This document shows positions 4,201 to 64,000 of a stretch of DNA of 64,000 bases, in pieces. Each line of letters begins with the position of its first letter. The stretch's first letter is position 1. The stretch spans positions 4,154,001 to 4,218,000 of the forward strand of contig NC_015064.1 in assembly GCF_000178975.2 (NCBI RefSeq). Direction: 5' to 3'. The notes beneath the pieces are model-generated. The model searched no databases. It worked only from the letters and a program-made list of their open reading frames with translations, and was not told where the DNA came from. The position numbers were made by a program, and so were the translations under genes. Source of the stretch: Granulicella tundricola MP5ACTX9 (GTDB taxonomy: Bacteria > Acidobacteriota > Terriglobia > Terriglobales > Acidobacteriaceae).

Positions 4201-4928
4201 TTCGTCGTCACCAGCACCTGGCCGGTCGAGGTCACATCACCCGAAACGTCCTGTGTCGAGCGATTCAACTGGAACTCACCGATCGCACCCTGCGAAACGT
4301 TGAAGATCGTCGTTCCCACCGTTTCGTCCGTGATGTCCTGGCCGTCGAGCAGAATACGGGTCGTACGTCCAGATACACCGCCAACCGACAGCGCCGAATA
4401 CCCAGCCTTCGTCGGGTCGAACGATCCGCCCGCCTGAAGAATGACGCCCGGTTCAATCTGAGCAACGTCCAGGAAGTTACGCCCATTGATCGGCAAAGAC
4501 TCGATCTGCTGGCTGGTCAGCACGTCGCTGACGCCCGGCTGGTCGGCGTTCACCTGAATCGAACCCGCATTCACCTCAACCGTCTCGCTGGACTGACCCA
4601 GGCTCAGTTTGAAAGTTCCCGGAGTCGTCGTTCCAACGCGAATCACCGTGGTGACTGCGAGCGACTGGAAGCCCGCCGAAGAAACCGTAACCTTATACGC
4701 TCCAGGGGTCAGCGGCCCAATCGAGTAGTAGCCCGCGCCATCCGTCTTCAACGTGCGCGAGAAACCCGTATCTGTACCGAACACTTTGACTTCCGCGCCC
4801 GGGACAGCCGCGCCGCTCGGATCCGTGATCGTGCCCTGAATCGATCCGCCGTTCGTCGAAACGTTCTGTCCATAGCTGGCGACGCTCATGACTACAGCCA
4901 TCGCGCCTACTCCAAAAAACTTCCTCAT
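1284..4928 (-). CDS. Oar-like TonB-dependent outer-membrane receptor with carboxypeptidase-regulatory-like domain
   Basis: A 1214-residue outer-membrane protein. It has a signal peptide (about residues 1-20, ending SYGQ), then an Ig-like carboxypeptidase-regulatory domain (about 27-110; GSIQGTITDPSGAAVPGAEV, then YSIGPLTPGAYKVTVSSAGF). A TonB plug follows (SLPINGRNFLDVAQIEPGV; GRTTRILLDGQDI), then a long beta-barrel ending in the aromatic LRLSF. This is the Oar/TonB-dependent-transporter architecture expanded in Acidobacteria and generally linked to uptake of large or complex substrates. The substrate cannot be told from sequence. AGGAG lies about 9 nt upstream of the ATG. The gene diverges from a second receptor of the same architecture at 5359 and has its own terminator at 1229-1263. 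Confidence 0.9.
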   Translation of the reverse strand: MRKFFGVGAMAVVMSVASYGQNVSTNGGSIQGTITDPSGAAVPGAEVKVFGTDTGFSRTLKTDGAGYYSIGPLTPGAYKVTVSSAGFQSLAVTTVIRVGTTTPGTFKLSLGQSSETVEVNAGSIQVNADQPGVSDVLTSQQIESLPINGRNFLDVAQIEPGVILQAGGSFDPTKAGYSALSVGGVSGRTTRILLDGQDITDETVGTTIFNVSQGAIGEFQLNRSTQDVSGDVTSTGQVLVTTKTGTNGFHGELFYNFQDSRALFATEFGSQPPFQRNQFGGSLGGPIIKDKLFFFGNLERIKQDAAQPAGVSSTFSQYVGLNVPSPYRETYSTVRLDYNGPKGGHYFVRANYNVNAVAGNFGEQFETYANRDNTPGIAGGVDYQFGRFTHSFRGSFEKFHNLISDTSSTAAVNLLPGIAYQNVVGTSPLLSTGPNVDAPQGTFQSDKQARYDGSWTKGTHTIRYGYSINYILGGGFANFFGLGPRLRTNSATLLANCGNVAGAAACPGDPLNGYHTSSLIIGNGLGYFTENPGFGANFGGVHDWREGAYVADSWKATPNLTVSAGVRWSVDTDRANQDLPGLPCSALDATQYNTSVGNVADNPCAGAAATTSLLGLYGSQFAGQVHQPYGNFAPQLGLAYALPDHVTVLRAGIGIFFEGDVFNNTTNARGALLKAGPFFAEAANGNVCGPGQFTNPDGSITNSATVGGQTMTIAQACAAPVKQAAPFILALSQGYQTASAKNPVSPNTSFIGETLNATGVYGAPYRTPYSEQWNFGLQRELFKGAVLSVDYVHNSTLKVAQEQDVNHVGAARYLNTTAATNAIAATLAPNAAAKYAGYPTCPQGSSAASINCAIANGATIDTFAQHGLDSGQAYLGGASAANNGDSIANGAAFPGANAKLGSGAFLLPVGRSGYDALQVVFREQKSHPVRGIERSNVQISYNLSRVVSSSFGGSDQFFSNSSWDNDNPNAYIGRAGLDRKHQVSFGGSFLVKHGPEVGVIGHFYSALPTSLTLDNTASSVGNIFQSDLTGDGTTGDLAPGTLPGDYMHRVKPGQLGAYINNFNQVYAGQLTPAGKALVAAGIFNSNQLTALNGVIQSLPTLPQAVAPANPMFRQVDVTFSYPIRIGRYVHTLGDSVLLEPKIAFYNVGNFSNYGNDGGNPNVAPFGGDLGTPGVGSVNGPNDFYSVDSQRVTRQSGTYDQGAPRTTEFQLRLSF

Positions 4929-5358
4929 CCGGTGTTCTCCTGAAGGTTACCGAGATCGTCGTTGTAAGCCGCCTCTCAATAAGGCTGGCCTCTGATTTCG
5001 TACGTTCACGGAACACATTGCACGTTACATTCCAATCTGCCTGATATATCTGTAGCGGACTGAGGTCGAGGTCCACCTAGGATCGCCCTGCTCTAAGTCT
5101 CCCGAATGCAACGAAAGTTGCAAGTCCGACTGAAGGCGCTCCCAGCCGACAGGGAACTCTTGCGCAGTCAGAACTTTAGCCTCCAATTACATGAAAAAGG
5201 AATGTTCTCCGTAAATTCATATATTGGGCAAAGCCCCCGCAATTTACAGCTCTGTTTTCATCAGAGAAGTCTCTTGCAAGAATGGCTGTCAAATTGCAGC
5301 AAGTGCAGCAGAACGCTTACAACCGTTTATCCTTATCACCCACACGAGGACTTCAAGA
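4929..5358. promoter_or_regulatory. Divergent promoter region between the two receptor genes
   Basis: These 430 bases separate two divergently transcribed receptor genes and must hold both promoters. The stretch 5180-5330 is clearly lower in GC than its neighbours. I see no near-consensus -35/-10 pair, riboswitch or convincing operator. Ribosome sites are present at both edges: AGGAG before the minus gene and GAGGA at 5346-5350 before the plus gene. Confidence 0.45.
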
Positions 5359-8300
5359 ATGAAACTTTCCCCCGCCTTGCGCAGAGCGACCATGCTGGGC
5401 ATCTTCGCCGCTTCGTTGACCGCAGCCCACGCAGCCGACGTCAATGCCCGTATCAAGGGCACCGTGACCGACCCCGCCGGAGCGGTTATTCCGAACGTCA
5501 AGGTCATCGCGATCAACCAGGCGACCGGCGTCAAGTTCACCACCACATCGCAGGCTAACGGCGACTATCTCTTCCCCCAGCTCCCAATTGGTACCTACAC
5601 CATCTCTGCCAGCGCCACCGGCTTCAAGGGCTTTGCGGCAAAGGGTATTGTTCTCAATATCGACCAGGAATACGTCGAGCCGGTCAAGCTGGACCTCGGA
5701 AGCGCCTCAGAGACCATCTCCGTTCAGGCAGATGCCGTCCAGGTCAACACCACCGACATGCAGCTCAACAACATCGTCAACGCAGACCAGTTCGTCGAGC
5801 TCCCGCTCATCGGTCGTGCCTTCACCAACCTTGAGCAGATTCTTCCCGGAGTTCAGGCTTCCAACGACCGCTTCGGCAGTTTCTCCGTCAACGGCTCCCA
5901 GACACAGCAGTCCAGCTACCTTATTAATGGAGCGGACTCCAACGACATCGCCCTGAACACCATCGGCATCCAGCCCAACCTCGACGCTCTGGCCCAGTTC
6001 AACCTCGTGACCGGCCCGCTCAACGCGGAATATGACCGTAACTCGGGCGCAGTCGTCAGCACCGTCATCAAGCAGGGAACGAATCAGTTTCACGGCGATG
6101 CATTCGACTTCTATCGCGATACCTTCCTCAACACCAAGAACTACTTCCAGACCAAGGCTTCCAAGTATCACCAGAACATCTATGGTGGAACCCTCGGCGG
6201 CCCCATCATCAAGGACAAGCTCTTCGCCTTTTTCGCATTTCAGGGTCAGAAGGCCGTAACCCCTCAGACCGGTGGAAACGTAACCGTCCTCTCCCCCGCT
6301 AACCTGACCGGAGACTTCTCCGCCGACCTCAACCCCACAAGCGCGAATGCATTTCAAGCCAATCCCGTCCCTGGCACCTTGAAGGCAGCCACCGGTTGCA
6401 CCTTGCCCGGTGAGACTTGGACCCAGTGCTTCCCGACCGGCAAAATTCCCACCACTGCTTTCAATCCCGTCTCACTCAATCTCATTAAGGCCTTCCTTCC
6501 CGCAGCCAATACCGGGACCAACGGCTTCCAGTTCAATCCCGTCACCACCCAGACGCAGCGCCAGTACATCGGACGCATGGACTTCAACCCCACGGCGGCC
6601 AATCAGTTCTACTTCGTCGCCATCCAGCAGCACTTCCCCAGCTCGGACGTACTCCCATTCACGGGCGGCACGGTTCCCGGCTTCGGCGACCAGAACACCA
6701 GCGAAATCTACCAGTACTCCGCCGGCTTTATCCGCCAGTTGAGCTCCAGCTCCGTCAACAATCTTGAAATCCACTACACCCGCTTCAACTTCGGATCGGT
6801 CAGCCCGCAGAACGTCGTGCAGCCTTCGACCCTGGGCTTCTCCATCACACCCCAGAATGCAGCTGCCGCCAGCGTACCTTTCATCGGTGTAACTGGCTTC
6901 TTCAACCTCGGTTTCAGCACCAACGGACCTCAGCCCCGCAAGGATCAGAACTATCAGGCGGACGATAACTTCTCGAAGGTCGTCGGTCATCACAACTTGA
7001 AGTTCGGCTACGACGGACGACGCTACAACGTCTCGAACCCCTTCTTCAGCAACAACAACGGTGCTTTCAGCTTCAATTCCGCAACAAACATCTTTACCAC
7101 CGGTGATGCGTCTCTCGACTTCCTGCTCGGCAACCCGTCCACCTACGCTCAGGGCTCAGGCGCTCAGATCAATGCTTACGCCTTCCTTAACTATATGTAT
7201 GCGCAGGACACCTGGAAGGCCACCAACAGCCTGACCATCTCGTATGGCATCGGCTATCAGATCGATACGCCGCTTCACAACACGCAATACAACAACGAAG
7301 GCGTCACCTGCTTTATCCCCGGCCAGCAGTCCAAGGTCTTCACCACGGCGCCTATCGGCCTCAACTATCCGTCGGATCCCGGCTGCAACAACGCCAGCGG
7401 CGCCACCACCCGTTATACGAACTTCGGACCTCGCTTCGGATTCGCGTATGCGCCCGACTTCGGCTTCCTCTCTGGCGGAAGTGCAAAGAAACTCTCGGTC
7501 CGCGGCGGATTTGGTGTCTATTACAACCGTTCGGAAGAAGAGACCTCGCTCAACAACCTCGGCGATGCTCCCTACGGCCTCAACTCCTCTGGTGCTGCGG
7601 ACTACGGTGCAACCAACCCCACCTTCGCCAATCCCTACCAGGATCTGGACACAGGCACGGTCTACAAGAACAAGTTCCCCGCAACCTTTGCGACGGCCGG
7701 TCAGACTCCTGACTTCTCCCCGTTCGAACCCCTTAGCCTCAGCCAGTACAGTCCGAACTTCCGCTCGCCCTACTCGGAAAACTTCCAGTTGACCGTAGAG
7801 CGCGAACTGCCCTCGCAGACCATCGCACGGCTCAGCTATGTCGGCACCCTTGGCCGGCATAACCAGTTCTCCGTGGAAGGCAATCCCGTCACCGCTGCCG
7901 GACATGCTGCTTGCCTCGCAAGCGCAGCCTGCATCACCAACCGCAACATTCAGAGCTACGTCTATCCCACCCACACTCAGTTCGGCGTTGCCAACGCAAG
8001 CACCGGCTTCAATAACTTCACCAGCATCGGGACGGTCACCACGGAGGGTGCATCAAGCTACCACGCTCTCCAGGCCAGCGTTGAAAAGGGTCTGACCCAC
8101 GGACTTCTGGTCCAGGCCAGCTATACCTACAGCCACTCGCTCGATAACGGATCCAGCTACGAAGGAACCGGCTACGGCGGCACCAACCGTGGTTACAACC
8201 AGTACCAGCCCAGCCTCAACTACGGTGACTCGAACTTCGACGCACGTCACCGCTTCGTCTTCAGCCCTCTCTATCGTGTGCCCTTCAAGTCCGGCGGCAA

Positions 8301-61270: not shown

Positions 61271-62617
61271 ATGCTGAAAGCGAAGATAAAAGGGACCGGC
61301 ACGCCCGGCGATGTGGCACTGGTGCTCATGCACTTTCTGGGCGGCAGCACGCGGGAGTGGGATGAGGTTGTGGGTCTATTGGGAGACGGCTTCCGGACGG
61401 TGGCGGTGGACCTGCCGGGGTTTGGCGAGGCTGCGGGTGAGCCCGGCTACTCGGTTGCGGAGATGGCGGATGCTGTGGAGGAACTGATCGCGCGGCTGGA
61501 GCTGGGGCGGTACGTGCTGGTGGGGCACAGCATGAGCGGAAAGGTCTCTGCTGTACTGGCGCGACGGGCTGCGGAGACAGCGCACGGCAGGCTCGCGGGC
61601 CTGATTCTGGTGGCTCCGTCTCCGCCCAGCCCGGAGCCGATGACAGACGACAAACGTGCCGGGATGCTGGAGTCGCTGGGCGCTGCAAAGGACGGTGATG
61701 AGGCGCGAGCTAAGGTCTACATCGGCCGCAACGAGGAGCGGGACATCCCTCCCGCGGTGCTGGCGCGCACGGTGGACGAGGTGTTGAAGATGAACCGCGC
61801 CGCCTGGGTGGCGTGGCTGGAGAGCGGCAGCCGGGAGGACTGGGGAGAGCGCGTCGGCGTGCTGGACCTGCCCGCGCTGGTCGTTGCTGGGGAGAAGGAT
61901 GCGTCGCTGGGCGAGGACTCTCAGCGCAAGTTCACGTTGCGGCATTTCTCCAGGGCGGAGCTGAAGGTGGTCGAAGGCTGTTCCCACCTGGTGCCGCTTG
62001 AACGGCCCACGGAGCTGGCGGAGATGATGCGGGCGTTTGTGGCAGAGCTGGGACGGGTGCCGGTTCCTGCGGAGTACCTGGAGTTCATCGCCTCGGAGCG
62101 GGTTTCGCCTAGAACGCGGGCGGTGCTGGAGGCTCGCATGGCTGGACCGGAGCCGACGGATATGCTGACGCCCGAGCAGATGGTGACGCTGCGTGCGATG
62201 CTCGCACGGATCGTCCCGCAGAAGGGTGAGGGAATCGACCTGGCTGGATATGTGGCGGCCTCGCTGGCCAAGGGCAAGGGCGATGGCTGGCGTTATGCCG
62301 TACTGCCGGAGGATGCGAAGGCGTATCGGGATGGGTTGGACTCCTTGAGAGCGCGTGGCTTCGACGAGATGAGTGATGAGGATCAGGATGCTGCTTTGAG
62401 GGCGCTTGAGGAGAAGAAAGGAAGCGCAGAGGCGTGCTGGTTTGAGGAGGTTCGCGGCGATGCTACGACCGCTTACATCTCGCACCCAGCGACGCTCGCG
62501 CGTATCGGCCACAGCGGCATCGGTGTAGGTGGCGCGAACACGCAGAACAAGGGATTTGTGGCGATTGGGATTGGCGATGTCGAGGCGTGGGAGCCGAAGG
62601 AGTTAGTGAAAGCGTGA
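61271..62617 (+). CDS. Alpha/beta-hydrolase fused to a gluconate-2-dehydrogenase subunit-3 domain
   Basis: A 448-residue fusion. Residues 1-255 are an alpha/beta hydrolase with nucleophile Ser87 (VGHSMSGK), Asp210 (VAGEKDASLG) and His239 (GCSHLVPLERP). Residues about 265-445 match the small subunit of FAD-dependent gluconate-type dehydrogenases (LTPEQMVTLRAMLARIVPQ, ISHPATLARIGHSGIGVGG). The small subunit normally assists maturation or export of the flavoprotein partner, which here is the GMC gene that overlaps its stop. The hydrolase may open or make a lactone of the sugar product; this is inferred. GAGAGG precedes ATG 61271. No signal peptide is seen. Confidence 0.85.
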   Translation: MLKAKIKGTGTPGDVALVLMHFLGGSTREWDEVVGLLGDGFRTVAVDLPGFGEAAGEPGYSVAEMADAVEELIARLELGRYVLVGHSMSGKVSAVLARRAAETAHGRLAGLILVAPSPPSPEPMTDDKRAGMLESLGAAKDGDEARAKVYIGRNEERDIPPAVLARTVDEVLKMNRAAWVAWLESGSREDWGERVGVLDLPALVVAGEKDASLGEDSQRKFTLRHFSRAELKVVEGCSHLVPLERPTELAEMMRAFVAELGRVPVPAEYLEFIASERVSPRTRAVLEARMAGPEPTDMLTPEQMVTLRAMLARIVPQKGEGIDLAGYVAASLAKGKGDGWRYAVLPEDAKAYRDGLDSLRARGFDEMSDEDQDAALRALEEKKGSAEACWFEEVRGDATTAYISHPATLARIGHSGIGVGGANTQNKGFVAIGIGDVEAWEPKELVKA

Positions 62618-64000
62618 AGAGCTTCAGCACGAACGATGTGGTGGATGTAGTGGTGATCGGTACTGGCGCGGGCGGCGCACCCGTGATGGCGACGCTGGCT
62701 GAGGCGGGGCTTTCGGTGGTTGCGCTGGAGGCCGGGCGCTGGTGGGACCCGGCAAAGGATTTCGCAGCCGACGAGGTGCAGATGTCCGAGCTCTACTGGC
62801 TGGACGAACGCATCAGCGCAGGTGAGACGCCGACAGCCTTCGGGGGCAACAACAGCGGGACGGGCGTGGGCGGCTCCATGCTGCACTGGGGTGCGTATGC
62901 TCCGCGTGCGGATGAGCGGGACCTGAAGCTGAAGACGGACTCCGGGCTGGGCGTGGATTTTCCGCTGGACTATGCGGAGCTGAAGCCGATCTATGAGGAG
63001 CTCGATCGCTTCATGGGGGTCTCCGGGCCGACGCCTTATCCGTGGAATGAGAGCAGGCAGTTTCCGTTGGGGCCCATCGCGTTGAATGCGCCGGCGCTGG
63101 CGATGCAGAAGGGGTTCGCCGCGCTTGGGATCAGGACGGCTGAGGCGCCCATCGCTGCTGTCTCAGCGAAGTACACGCAGCCGGGGTATGCGGAGCGGCA
63201 GCCTTGTGTGGGGTGTGGATTTTGTCACCAAGGGTGCGTATTCAATGGGGCCAAGGGCAGCATGGACGTGACCTGGTTGCCGCGCGCTCTCGCTGCGGGA
63301 GTGGAGATCAGGCCGGACAGCTTTGTGCATCAGATTGAGCTCGATGCCAAAGGAGAGGTCTCGGCGGTGGTCTATCGCACGAAGAGTGAAGACCATAGGC
63401 AACGATGCAAGGCTGTGTTCCTCTGCGCGGGTGCGGTGGAGACGCCTCGGTTGCTGCTGCACACGGGACTTGCGAACTCCTCCGGGCAGGTGGGACGGAA
63501 CTTCATGGCGCACGTCGCGACGCAGGCCTGGGGTACGTTTGCGCCGGAGATGCGGATGAACAAGGGCTTCCCTGCGTCGCTAATCTCAGAGGAGATGATG
63601 CGGCCTGCGGACGCGGACTTTGTGGGCGGCTACCTGGTGCAGCCTCTGGGCGTGGTGCCGGTGACCTTTGCGAAGCAGGTTGCGCGAGGGCGTGGGCTTT
63701 GGGGTCAGGCGCTGGTGGACTACCTGGACCAGTACAACCACATTGCAGGGATTGGGATTAACGGCGACTGCCTGCCGTATAACGGCAACTACCTTGAGCT
63801 TTCAGACGAGGCGGATCAGCGCGACGGCATCGGCATGCCCAAGCCGCTCATCCACTTCAGCTACGGCGAAAACGAAAAACGCATGAGTGAGCATGGAGCG
63901 AAGCTGATGACCTCGGCGTGGGAGGCTGCAGGCGCGACCGATATTTGGACCTTCGAGCGCTCGGCCCACACCATCGGCACCTGCCGTATGGGCGACGACC
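62614..64000 (+). CDS. GMC-family FAD dehydrogenase (gluconate/sorbitol dehydrogenase-type large subunit), 5' part
   Basis: From GTG 62614, which overlaps the TGA of the previous gene (GTGA), the frame is open to the right edge, at least 462 residues. The FAD-binding VVIGTGAGGAPVMATLAE is at the N-terminus. The motif CVGCGFCHQGCVFNGAKGS gives four cysteines (C-x2-C-x2-C-x3-C) like those that hold the iron-sulfur cluster of FAD-dependent glucose/gluconate dehydrogenases. AAGGAG lies 11 nt upstream. Coupled translation with the subunit-3 fusion suggests one complex. The C-terminus is outside the window. Confidence 0.88.
   Translation, partial: MKSFSTNDVVDVVVIGTGAGGAPVMATLAEAGLSVVALEAGRWWDPAKDFAADEVQMSELYWLDERISAGETPTAFGGNNSGTGVGGSMLHWGAYAPRADERDLKLKTDSGLGVDFPLDYAELKPIYEELDRFMGVSGPTPYPWNESRQFPLGPIALNAPALAMQKGFAALGIRTAEAPIAAVSAKYTQPGYAERQPCVGCGFCHQGCVFNGAKGSMDVTWLPRALAAGVEIRPDSFVHQIELDAKGEVSAVVYRTKSEDHRQRCKAVFLCAGAVETPRLLLHTGLANSSGQVGRNFMAHVATQAWGTFAPEMRMNKGFPASLISEEMMRPADADFVGGYLVQPLGVVPVTFAKQVARGRGLWGQALVDYLDQYNHIAGIGINGDCLPYNGNYLELSDEADQRDGIGMPKPLIHFSYGENEKRMSEHGAKLMTSAWEAAGATDIWTFERSAHTIGTCRMGDD

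What the first reader, a model, noticed from the sequence alone, without database searches (positions are those of the whole stretch)
61271..64000. Alpha/beta-hydrolase fused to a dehydrogenase small subunit, coupled to a GMC dehydrogenase
The hydrolase triad (Ser87, Asp210, His239) and a gluconate-2-dehydrogenase subunit-3 domain sit in one uninterrupted frame, whose TGA overlaps the GTG of the four-cysteine GMC flavoprotein. Such a fusion could place a lactonase or esterase directly on a sugar dehydrogenase, so oxidation and lactone opening would be coupled.
Basis: partly seen in the sequence, partly recalled or inferred. Interest (0 to 1): 0.5.

Follow-up and report, generated by a model that had tools for sequence, protein, structure and literature searches.

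The report
Hydrolase fused to dehydrogenase partner subunit
A bacterial protein joins a hydrolase to the small partner subunit of a flavin sugar-type dehydrogenase, and related bacteria keep the same three parts together as fused, neighbouring or scattered genes, which suggests the two enzymes work as one unit inside the cell on a substrate still unknown.

Summary
ORF 61271-62617 (448 aa) joins an alpha/beta-hydrolase (Ser87/Asp210/His239) to a Gluconate_2-dh3 (PF13618) domain. Its TGA overlaps the GTG of a GMC flavoprotein that ends at window-equivalent 64167. It is no sequencing accident: the fusion recurs in 10 other related genomes and on plasmids of Methylobacterium, Comamonadaceae and two Sphingomonas. 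Among 398 genomes of the family, 26 carry this GMC clade. All 26 carry the hydrolase (one copy broken), although the genes are fused (11), tandem (4), divergent (7), convergent (1) or unlinked (3). Of the other 372, one has a hydrolase of this clade. Three Deinococcus plasmids keep it in the same operon. So the hydrolase looks like a dedicated partner of the dehydrogenase. The GMC keeps the Cx5Cx3C spacing of 3Fe-4S fructose/glucose dehydrogenases, but no Tat signal and no cytochrome c gene were found, so the complex is probably cytoplasmic. The coupling idea is supported. The lactone-opening chemistry is untested: the hydrolase model fits esterases and lactonases about equally. I call it a new variant of a known kind (FAD/3Fe-4S dehydrogenase with small subunit), in which the subunit that usually carries an export signal carries an enzyme instead.

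The parts
61271..62617 (+). Fused ORF, 448 aa: alpha/beta-hydrolase plus Gluconate_2-dh3-type small subunit
   Evidence: Open frame; both Pfam domains over their cut-offs
61271..62050 (+). Alpha/beta-hydrolase domain (residues 1-260)
   Evidence: Pfam; model residues 1-261 match solved esterases at Z about 30
61529..61531 (+). Codon of nucleophile Ser87 (GHSMSGK)
   Evidence: Ser in 27 of 27 aligned hydrolases
61898..61900 (+). Codon of triad acid Asp210
   Evidence: Asp in 22, Glu in 5 of 27
61985..61987 (+). Codon of triad His239
   Evidence: His in 27 of 27
62063..62614 (+). Small-subunit domain (residues 265-448), related to stand-alone PF13618 proteins
   Evidence: PF13618 E 6.2e-9; 26 of 27 aligned rows match PF13618
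62597..62602 (+). AAGGAG, Shine-Dalgarno-like, 11 nt before the GTG of the GMC gene
   Evidence: Read from sequence
62614..62617 (+). GTGA overlap of the fusion's stop and the GMC start
   Evidence: Read from sequence
62614..64000 (+). GMC flavoprotein, clade A (517 aa in all; continues to 64167 outside the window)
   Evidence: L003:6614-8167; Pfam GMC_oxred_N/C; best PDB relatives fructose dehydrogenase 8k6k (2.6e-43) and FAD glucose dehydrogenase 6a2u (8e-40)
63205..63237 (+). CVGCGFCHQGC, Cx5Cx3C cysteine motif of the presumed 3Fe-4S cluster
   Evidence: C198, C204, C208 in 29 of 29 GMC proteins; aligns with the FDH cysteine loop

Best explanation
This is a two-gene cytoplasmic enzyme module. 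The fusion's C-terminal domain is the small (gamma-type) subunit of a GMC dehydrogenase and docks on the flavoprotein made by the overlapping downstream gene. Its N-terminal hydrolase is thereby tethered to that dehydrogenase. The dehydrogenase oxidises a hydroxyl group, most likely of a sugar or glycoside, and passes electrons from FAD to a 3Fe-4S cluster and then to an unknown acceptor. The hydrolase performs a neighbouring step on the same metabolite, either opening an ester or lactone product or releasing the substrate from an ester. Shown here: the fusion, the conserved active-site residues and cysteines, the co-occurrence of the two enzymes, and the changing linkage. Inferred: physical docking, cytoplasmic location, carbohydrate substrate. 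Guessed: which bond the hydrolase cuts and in which order.
For: (1) Co-occurrence in 398 genomes: GMC clade A (801 bits or more) in 26; hydrolase at 289 bits or more in 25 of these, and the 26th (G270) has a frame-broken copy next to the small subunit; none of the other 372 reaches 289 bits. (2) Linkage changes while the set is kept: fused with GMC next to it 10, fused with GMC on another contig 1, tandem 4, divergent 7, convergent 1, unlinked 3. (3) The three unlinked hydrolases fall inside the partner clade of the hydrolase tree. (4) In PLSDB the seven records whose GMC is at least 52% identical to this one (the next is 43.5%) all carry the hydrolase, four fused and three in Deinococcus operons. 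(5) Deinococcus hydrolases join the partner clade with support 95/82. (6) Cx5Cx3C in 29 of 29 GMC, as in BcGDH Cys212/218/222 (PMC6719666 passages). (7) Stand-alone small subunits begin close to the domain with no twin arginine after the likely start. (8) Glycoside genes beside it on plasmids: GH1 and Gfo/Idh/MocA inside the operon in two Deinococcus, GH15 and SDR in Comamonadaceae, GH43 and beta-glucosidase or GH95 in Sphingomonas.
Against: No binding or activity data. G141 holds a hydrolase of the partner clade (252.6 bits) but no clade-A GMC. The hydrolase and GMC profiles were trained largely on linked copies, which inflates the score gap; G354 and G393 hydrolases were not in training and still scored 347 and 290 bits. 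Genomes are related, so counts are not independent. The small-subunit profile finds no solved structure by sequence, so docking like BcGDH gamma is inferred from Pfam membership. No electron-acceptor gene is visible. The carbohydrate inference rests on a few plasmids; no glycoside gene family recurs beside the module in the window's own family.
Confidence: 0.6

Rival explanations
1. Oxidation then lactone opening: the GMC oxidises a cyclic hemiacetal carbon to a lactone and the tethered hydrolase opens it, pulling the reaction forward. (A special case of the best explanation.)
For: Closest named hydrolase models are enol-lactonases (PcaDC 110.6 bits, PcaD 88 bits; 27 of 27 members match); closest GMC structures include FAD glucose dehydrogenase, a C1 oxidiser (PMC6719666 passages); AHL lactonase Est816 and the enol-lactonase are among the structure matches.
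Against: All NCBIfam lactonase scores are far below their cut-offs. Esterases, haloperoxidases and a feruloyl esterase match as well or better. The best GMC match is fructose dehydrogenase, whose product is not a lactone (recalled). Sugar lactones also open without an enzyme (recalled).
Confidence: 0.3
2. Hydrolysis then oxidation: the hydrolase removes an acyl or aryl ester from a sugar or alcohol, and the freed hydroxyl is the GMC substrate. (A special case of the best explanation.)
For: Structure and sequence matches are mostly ester hydrolases: 4uhc, a type-A feruloyl esterase (7dq9) and aryl esterase (1va4). Several hosts are plant isolates (Arabidopsis leaf, Chinese cabbage).
Against: No ester substrate is indicated by the operons. 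A shared fold shows no function.
Confidence: 0.3
3. The hydrolase cuts a carbon-carbon bond of a 1,3-dicarbonyl made by the GMC, as in polyvinyl alcohol breakdown (that pathway is recalled).
For: C-C bond hydrolases (HsaD, BphD, MCP hydrolase) are among the weak matches.
Against: These matches are weaker than those to esterases and lactonases; no aromatic or polymer breakdown genes recur next to the module.
Confidence: 0.1
4. The fusion is an incidental read-through of neighbours with no functional meaning; the hydrolase is unrelated to the dehydrogenase.
For: The fused state is not one clade on the GMC tree (AU p 0.0145), so fusion or fission happened more than once, as neighbours in tandem could do easily (G284 has only a stop codon and about 30 nt between them).
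Against: The hydrolase is kept with the GMC even when unlinked or divergent, and in Deinococcus in a different order.
Confidence: 0.08

Closest known systems
Burkholderia FAD glucose dehydrogenase (BcGDH, PDB 6a2u) and Gluconobacter fructose dehydrogenase (7w2j/8k6k)
   Same: GMC catalytic subunit with Cx5Cx3C cysteines and a small partner subunit (that the BcGDH small subunit is of the Gluconate_2-dh3 kind is recalled, not run here).
   Different: No Tat signal on the small subunit, no tri-heme cytochrome gene found, and a hydrolase added to the small subunit's N-terminus, where BcGDH has its export signal (PMC6719666 and PMC9727119 passages).
Clade-B GMC modules (thiamine-pyrophosphate enzyme, enolase-like protein, hypothetical, small subunit, GMC) of plasmids and of this genome's contig C2
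   Same: Same two subunit families, mostly overlapping genes, same Cx5Cx3C motif.
   Different: GMC only about 40-43% identical; no alpha/beta-hydrolase annotated within 5-6 kb in 11 of 11 plasmid loci viewed, though this genome's own C2 copy has two unrelated alpha/beta-hydrolases next to it.
PcaD 3-oxoadipate enol-lactonase and PcaDC/PcaCD fusions
   Same: Same fold; a hydrolase fused to a functionally linked partner.
   Different: Scores far under the curated cut-offs; partner domain unrelated.

Membership tests
Direct-electron-transfer FAD dehydrogenase complex (BcGDH/FDH/gluconate 2-dehydrogenase kind) | GMC-type FAD catalytic subunit | tested here: met
   PF05199 E 2.7e-22 and PF00732 E 1.6e-15; 8k6k E 2.6e-43
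Direct-electron-transfer FAD dehydrogenase complex (BcGDH/FDH/gluconate 2-dehydrogenase kind) | Three cysteines for a 3Fe-4S cluster, spacing as Cys212/218/222 | tested here: met
   C198/C204/C208 in 29 of 29. The cluster itself is not testable here; that these three of the four BcGDH cysteines are the ligands is inferred from Cys213 being in a disulfide
Direct-electron-transfer FAD dehydrogenase complex (BcGDH/FDH/gluconate 2-dehydrogenase kind) | Small subunit of the Gluconate_2-dh3 family | tested here: met
   PF13618 in 26 of 27 aligned rows, window included
Direct-electron-transfer FAD dehydrogenase complex (BcGDH/FDH/gluconate 2-dehydrogenase kind) | Tat signal on the small subunit for export | tested here: not met
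   The fusion starts with the hydrolase; in 15 stand-alone small subunits no RR follows the likely start (L045 would have one only from a GTG 72 residues upstream, and L028 has no ATG or GTG in its short upstream frame)
Direct-electron-transfer FAD dehydrogenase complex (BcGDH/FDH/gluconate 2-dehydrogenase kind) | Tri-heme cytochrome c subunit in the operon | tested here: not met
   No CxxCH in 10.8 kb right of the GMC; no third neighbour family shared across the 26 loci. A cytochrome elsewhere in the genome was not searched
3-oxoadipate enol-lactonase (PcaD equivalog) | Score over NCBIfam TIGR02427 cut-off 255.85 | tested here: not met
   88 bits
Alpha/beta-hydrolase superfamily | Ser-acid-His triad in the canonical fold | tested here: met
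   catalysis not tested
Gluconate 2-dehydrogenase (EC 1.1.99.3) | Oxidises gluconate at C2 | not testable with these tools
   Needs an assay; the Pfam name gives only the domain family

The most novel reading that the evidence does not exclude
A small subunit known as an export carrier for GMC dehydrogenases has, in a cytoplasmic lineage found in this genome's family, in Pseudomonadota and (unfused) in Deinococcota, been turned into a scaffold that fixes a dedicated hydrolase beside the flavin enzyme, giving a two-step oxidise-and-hydrolyse machine on an unrecognised glycoside route.
Probability: 0.3. Interest if true: 0.65.

Novelty: new variant of a known kind. Interest (0 to 1): 0.43.

Why it matters
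Annotation labels the fusion just 'alpha/beta hydrolase', hiding that it is a dehydrogenase subunit. The natural series of fused, tandem, divergent and scattered versions makes the functional link testable, and points to a cytoplasmic 3Fe-4S GMC dehydrogenase whose substrate and electron acceptor are unknown. If the two steps are channelled, the fusion is a ready-made two-step biocatalyst.

Tried and rejected
Considered and set aside: sequencing error or missed stop (fusion recurs in 14 further loci); chance neighbours (co-occurrence persists without linkage); single origin of the fusion (all 15 fused rows as one clade lowers the log-likelihood by 28.45, AU p 0.0145, a grouping named after the tree was seen; the fewest changes are 3 on the GMC tree, 3 on the small-subunit tree and 2 on the hydrolase tree, the last two being quick, weakly supported trees).

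Papers: searches returned none; others gave listings. I read passages of PMC9727119, PMC6719666 and PMC10924467; the others were seen as listings only. No title or abstract start in these listings described the fusion; the library holds open-licence papers only.

Limits: at most 6 and 3 first-look candidates per genome were scored, so weaker copies may be missed. Phylum sample: 12 of 396 genomes had the small subunit at E 1e-12, all in the window's own family. Rows dropped before counts: L058 and clade-B rows served as outgroup in the GMC tree; the broken G270 hydrolase was left out of the last two hydrolase trees, and three long rows out of the last one.

Full report
What is there. ORF 61271-62617 on the + strand is uninterrupted for 448 codons. 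Pfam finds Abhydrolase_6 at residues 17-251 and Gluconate_2-dh3 (PF13618) at 301-408, both over their cut-offs. The TGA overlaps the GTG of the next gene, which has AAGGAG 11 nt upstream. That gene leaves the window and ends at 64167 in window coordinates; it encodes a 517-aa GMC flavoprotein. Its closest solved relatives are fructose dehydrogenase and Burkholderia FAD glucose dehydrogenase. To the left lie dut and purL on the other strand (names from my reading); to the right a membrane protein, an epimerase and housekeeping genes (names by reading). No CxxCH motif occurs in the 10.8 kb to the right.

Is it real and more than chance? A search of 150 genomes of the family with the window protein found one other fused protein (G140, 43% over residues 6-430) and two genomes where the halves are separate genes. 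A small-subunit profile on 398 genomes of the family hit 67. Scanning the best of these loci with hydrolase, small-subunit and GMC profiles showed the fusion in 11 genomes, window included. In PLSDB, tblastn with the small-subunit part hit 21 records; the fusion is present in Methylobacterium bullatum, a Comamonadaceae bacterium, Sphingomonas insulae and S. parapaucimobilis. Where annotated, the product name is just an alpha/beta hydrolase. In 14 of these 15 fused loci the GMC gene follows directly; in G242 it lies on another contig.

Partnership. In the 398-genome sample GMC scores fall into two groups: 801-917 bits (clade A, 26 genomes) and 430-552 bits (clade B). Hydrolase scores of 289 bits or more occur in 25 genomes, all of them among the 26; the 26th, G270, has a hydrolase broken over two frames in a draft assembly. 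The next hydrolase is G141 at 252.6 bits, then 210 and below. The tree puts G141 inside the partner clade and the other low scorers that were put in the tree outside it, so G141 is one real exception among the 372 genomes without clade-A GMC. Fisher's test on 25/1 against 0/372 gives 9e-39, but the genomes are related and the profiles were built mostly from linked copies, so this is not a probability of independence. Two hydrolases not used to build the profile, in G354 and G393, still score 347 and 290 bits.

Arrangement of the 26: fused with GMC next to it in G000, G140, G188, G285, G290, G321, G351, G357, G381, G389 (10); fused with GMC elsewhere in G242 (1); tandem separate genes in G150, G221, G278, G284 (4); divergent in G219, G231, G240, G248, G263, G270, G295 (7; in G240 the GMC is on another, small contig); convergent in G393 (1); unlinked in G043, G101 and G354 (3; G101 at about 45 kb). 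In G278 the hydrolase stop overlaps the small-subunit start (ATGA), and in G284 one stop codon and about 30 nt part them in the same frame. G354 has the small subunit and GMC at a site that shares flanking gene families with the window and three other loci, while its hydrolase lies about 740 kb away. The set is kept although its order is not, which argues for a shared task.

Wider. Of 25 plasmid records with a related GMC at E 1e-100, seven are at least 52% identical and 18 are 43.5% or less. All seven close ones carry the hydrolase: four fused, and three Deinococcus plasmids with small subunit, GMC and hydrolase in one run of same-strand genes (D. psychrotolerans directly, D. gobiensis and D. 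actinosclerus with Gfo/Idh/MocA and GH1 genes between). The Deinococcus hydrolases join the partner clade with support 95/82. As a contrast I viewed 11 plasmid loci of the more distant kind, not all of them in the list: none has an alpha/beta-hydrolase annotated within 5-6 kb. Against this contrast, the window genome's own clade-B copy on contig C2 has two alpha/beta-hydrolases next to it (my reading), but one scores only 68-69 bits and is an outgroup, and the other does not register. On the GMC tree the Pseudomonadota fusions form one clade (100/100) nested among those of the window's family (98/94), which suggests transfer of the fused form. The fused rows as one clade are disfavoured (AU p 0.0145), so fusion or fission happened more than once.

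Mechanism. In BcGDH the small subunit carries a 47-residue signal peptide, sits next to the 3Fe-4S loop and is needed for folding and export of the GMC subunit (PMC6719666 passages; PMC9727119 passages). Here the cysteine spacing is kept in 29 of 29 proteins and the catalytic His452 in 28 of 28 with that column, but the small subunit has no export signal: it either carries the hydrolase or starts close to the domain. I infer a cytoplasmic complex in which the small-subunit domain docks on the GMC and holds the hydrolase there. Electrons would leave by the cluster to an acceptor not encoded nearby. Neighbouring glycoside-hydrolase and Gfo/Idh/MocA genes on the plasmids make a sugar or glycoside the best guess. 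The hydrolase model (mean pLDDT of the whole fusion 89.4) matches esterases (5h3h Z 30.7, rmsd 2.1 over 249), an enol-lactonase (2xua Z 28.7, rmsd 2.4 over 247) and an AHL lactonase (5egn Z 28.4, rmsd 2.3 over 241) too closely to choose. Residues Glu122, Arg129, Trp182 and Asp190 are invariant in 27 of 27, in keeping with one polar substrate class; that they line the pocket was not checked.

Verdict. The lactone chemistry and the cytochrome partner are not supported by what is here. It is a new variant of a known kind of dehydrogenase complex, moderately interesting because comparison gives strong evidence for a hydrolase-dehydrogenase partnership that annotation hides.

Noticed in passing
L004:4368-6869 (window genome contig C2): A second small-subunit plus GMC pair of clade B; its GMC matches in two frames (4542-5786 and 5749-6021), so it looks frame-broken.
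   Followed up: partly
L004, L058, L113, L114, L115, L118, L119, L120, L122: A recurrent cluster of thiamine-pyrophosphate enzyme, enolase-like protein, hypothetical protein, small subunit and GMC on plasmids of several bacterial groups (labels for L004 are my reading).
   Followed up: partly
L057:6467-8023 (Deinococcus actinosclerus plasmid): The GMC gene is annotated 'ribonuclease BN', which its sequence does not support.
   Followed up: yes
L028:1471-1473 (G284): A single in-frame stop and about 30 nt separate hydrolase and small subunit, the shortest step between the split and fused forms.
   Followed up: partly
L074:7321-8724 (G242): A fusion without its GMC next to it; a clade-A GMC is on another contig, C11.
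   Followed up: yes
L043/L088 (G270): The divergent hydrolase is split over two frames, either decay or a draft-assembly error.
   Followed up: no
L010 (G141): A partner-clade hydrolase in a genome whose only related GMC found is of clade B; its neighbours were not studied.
   Followed up: no
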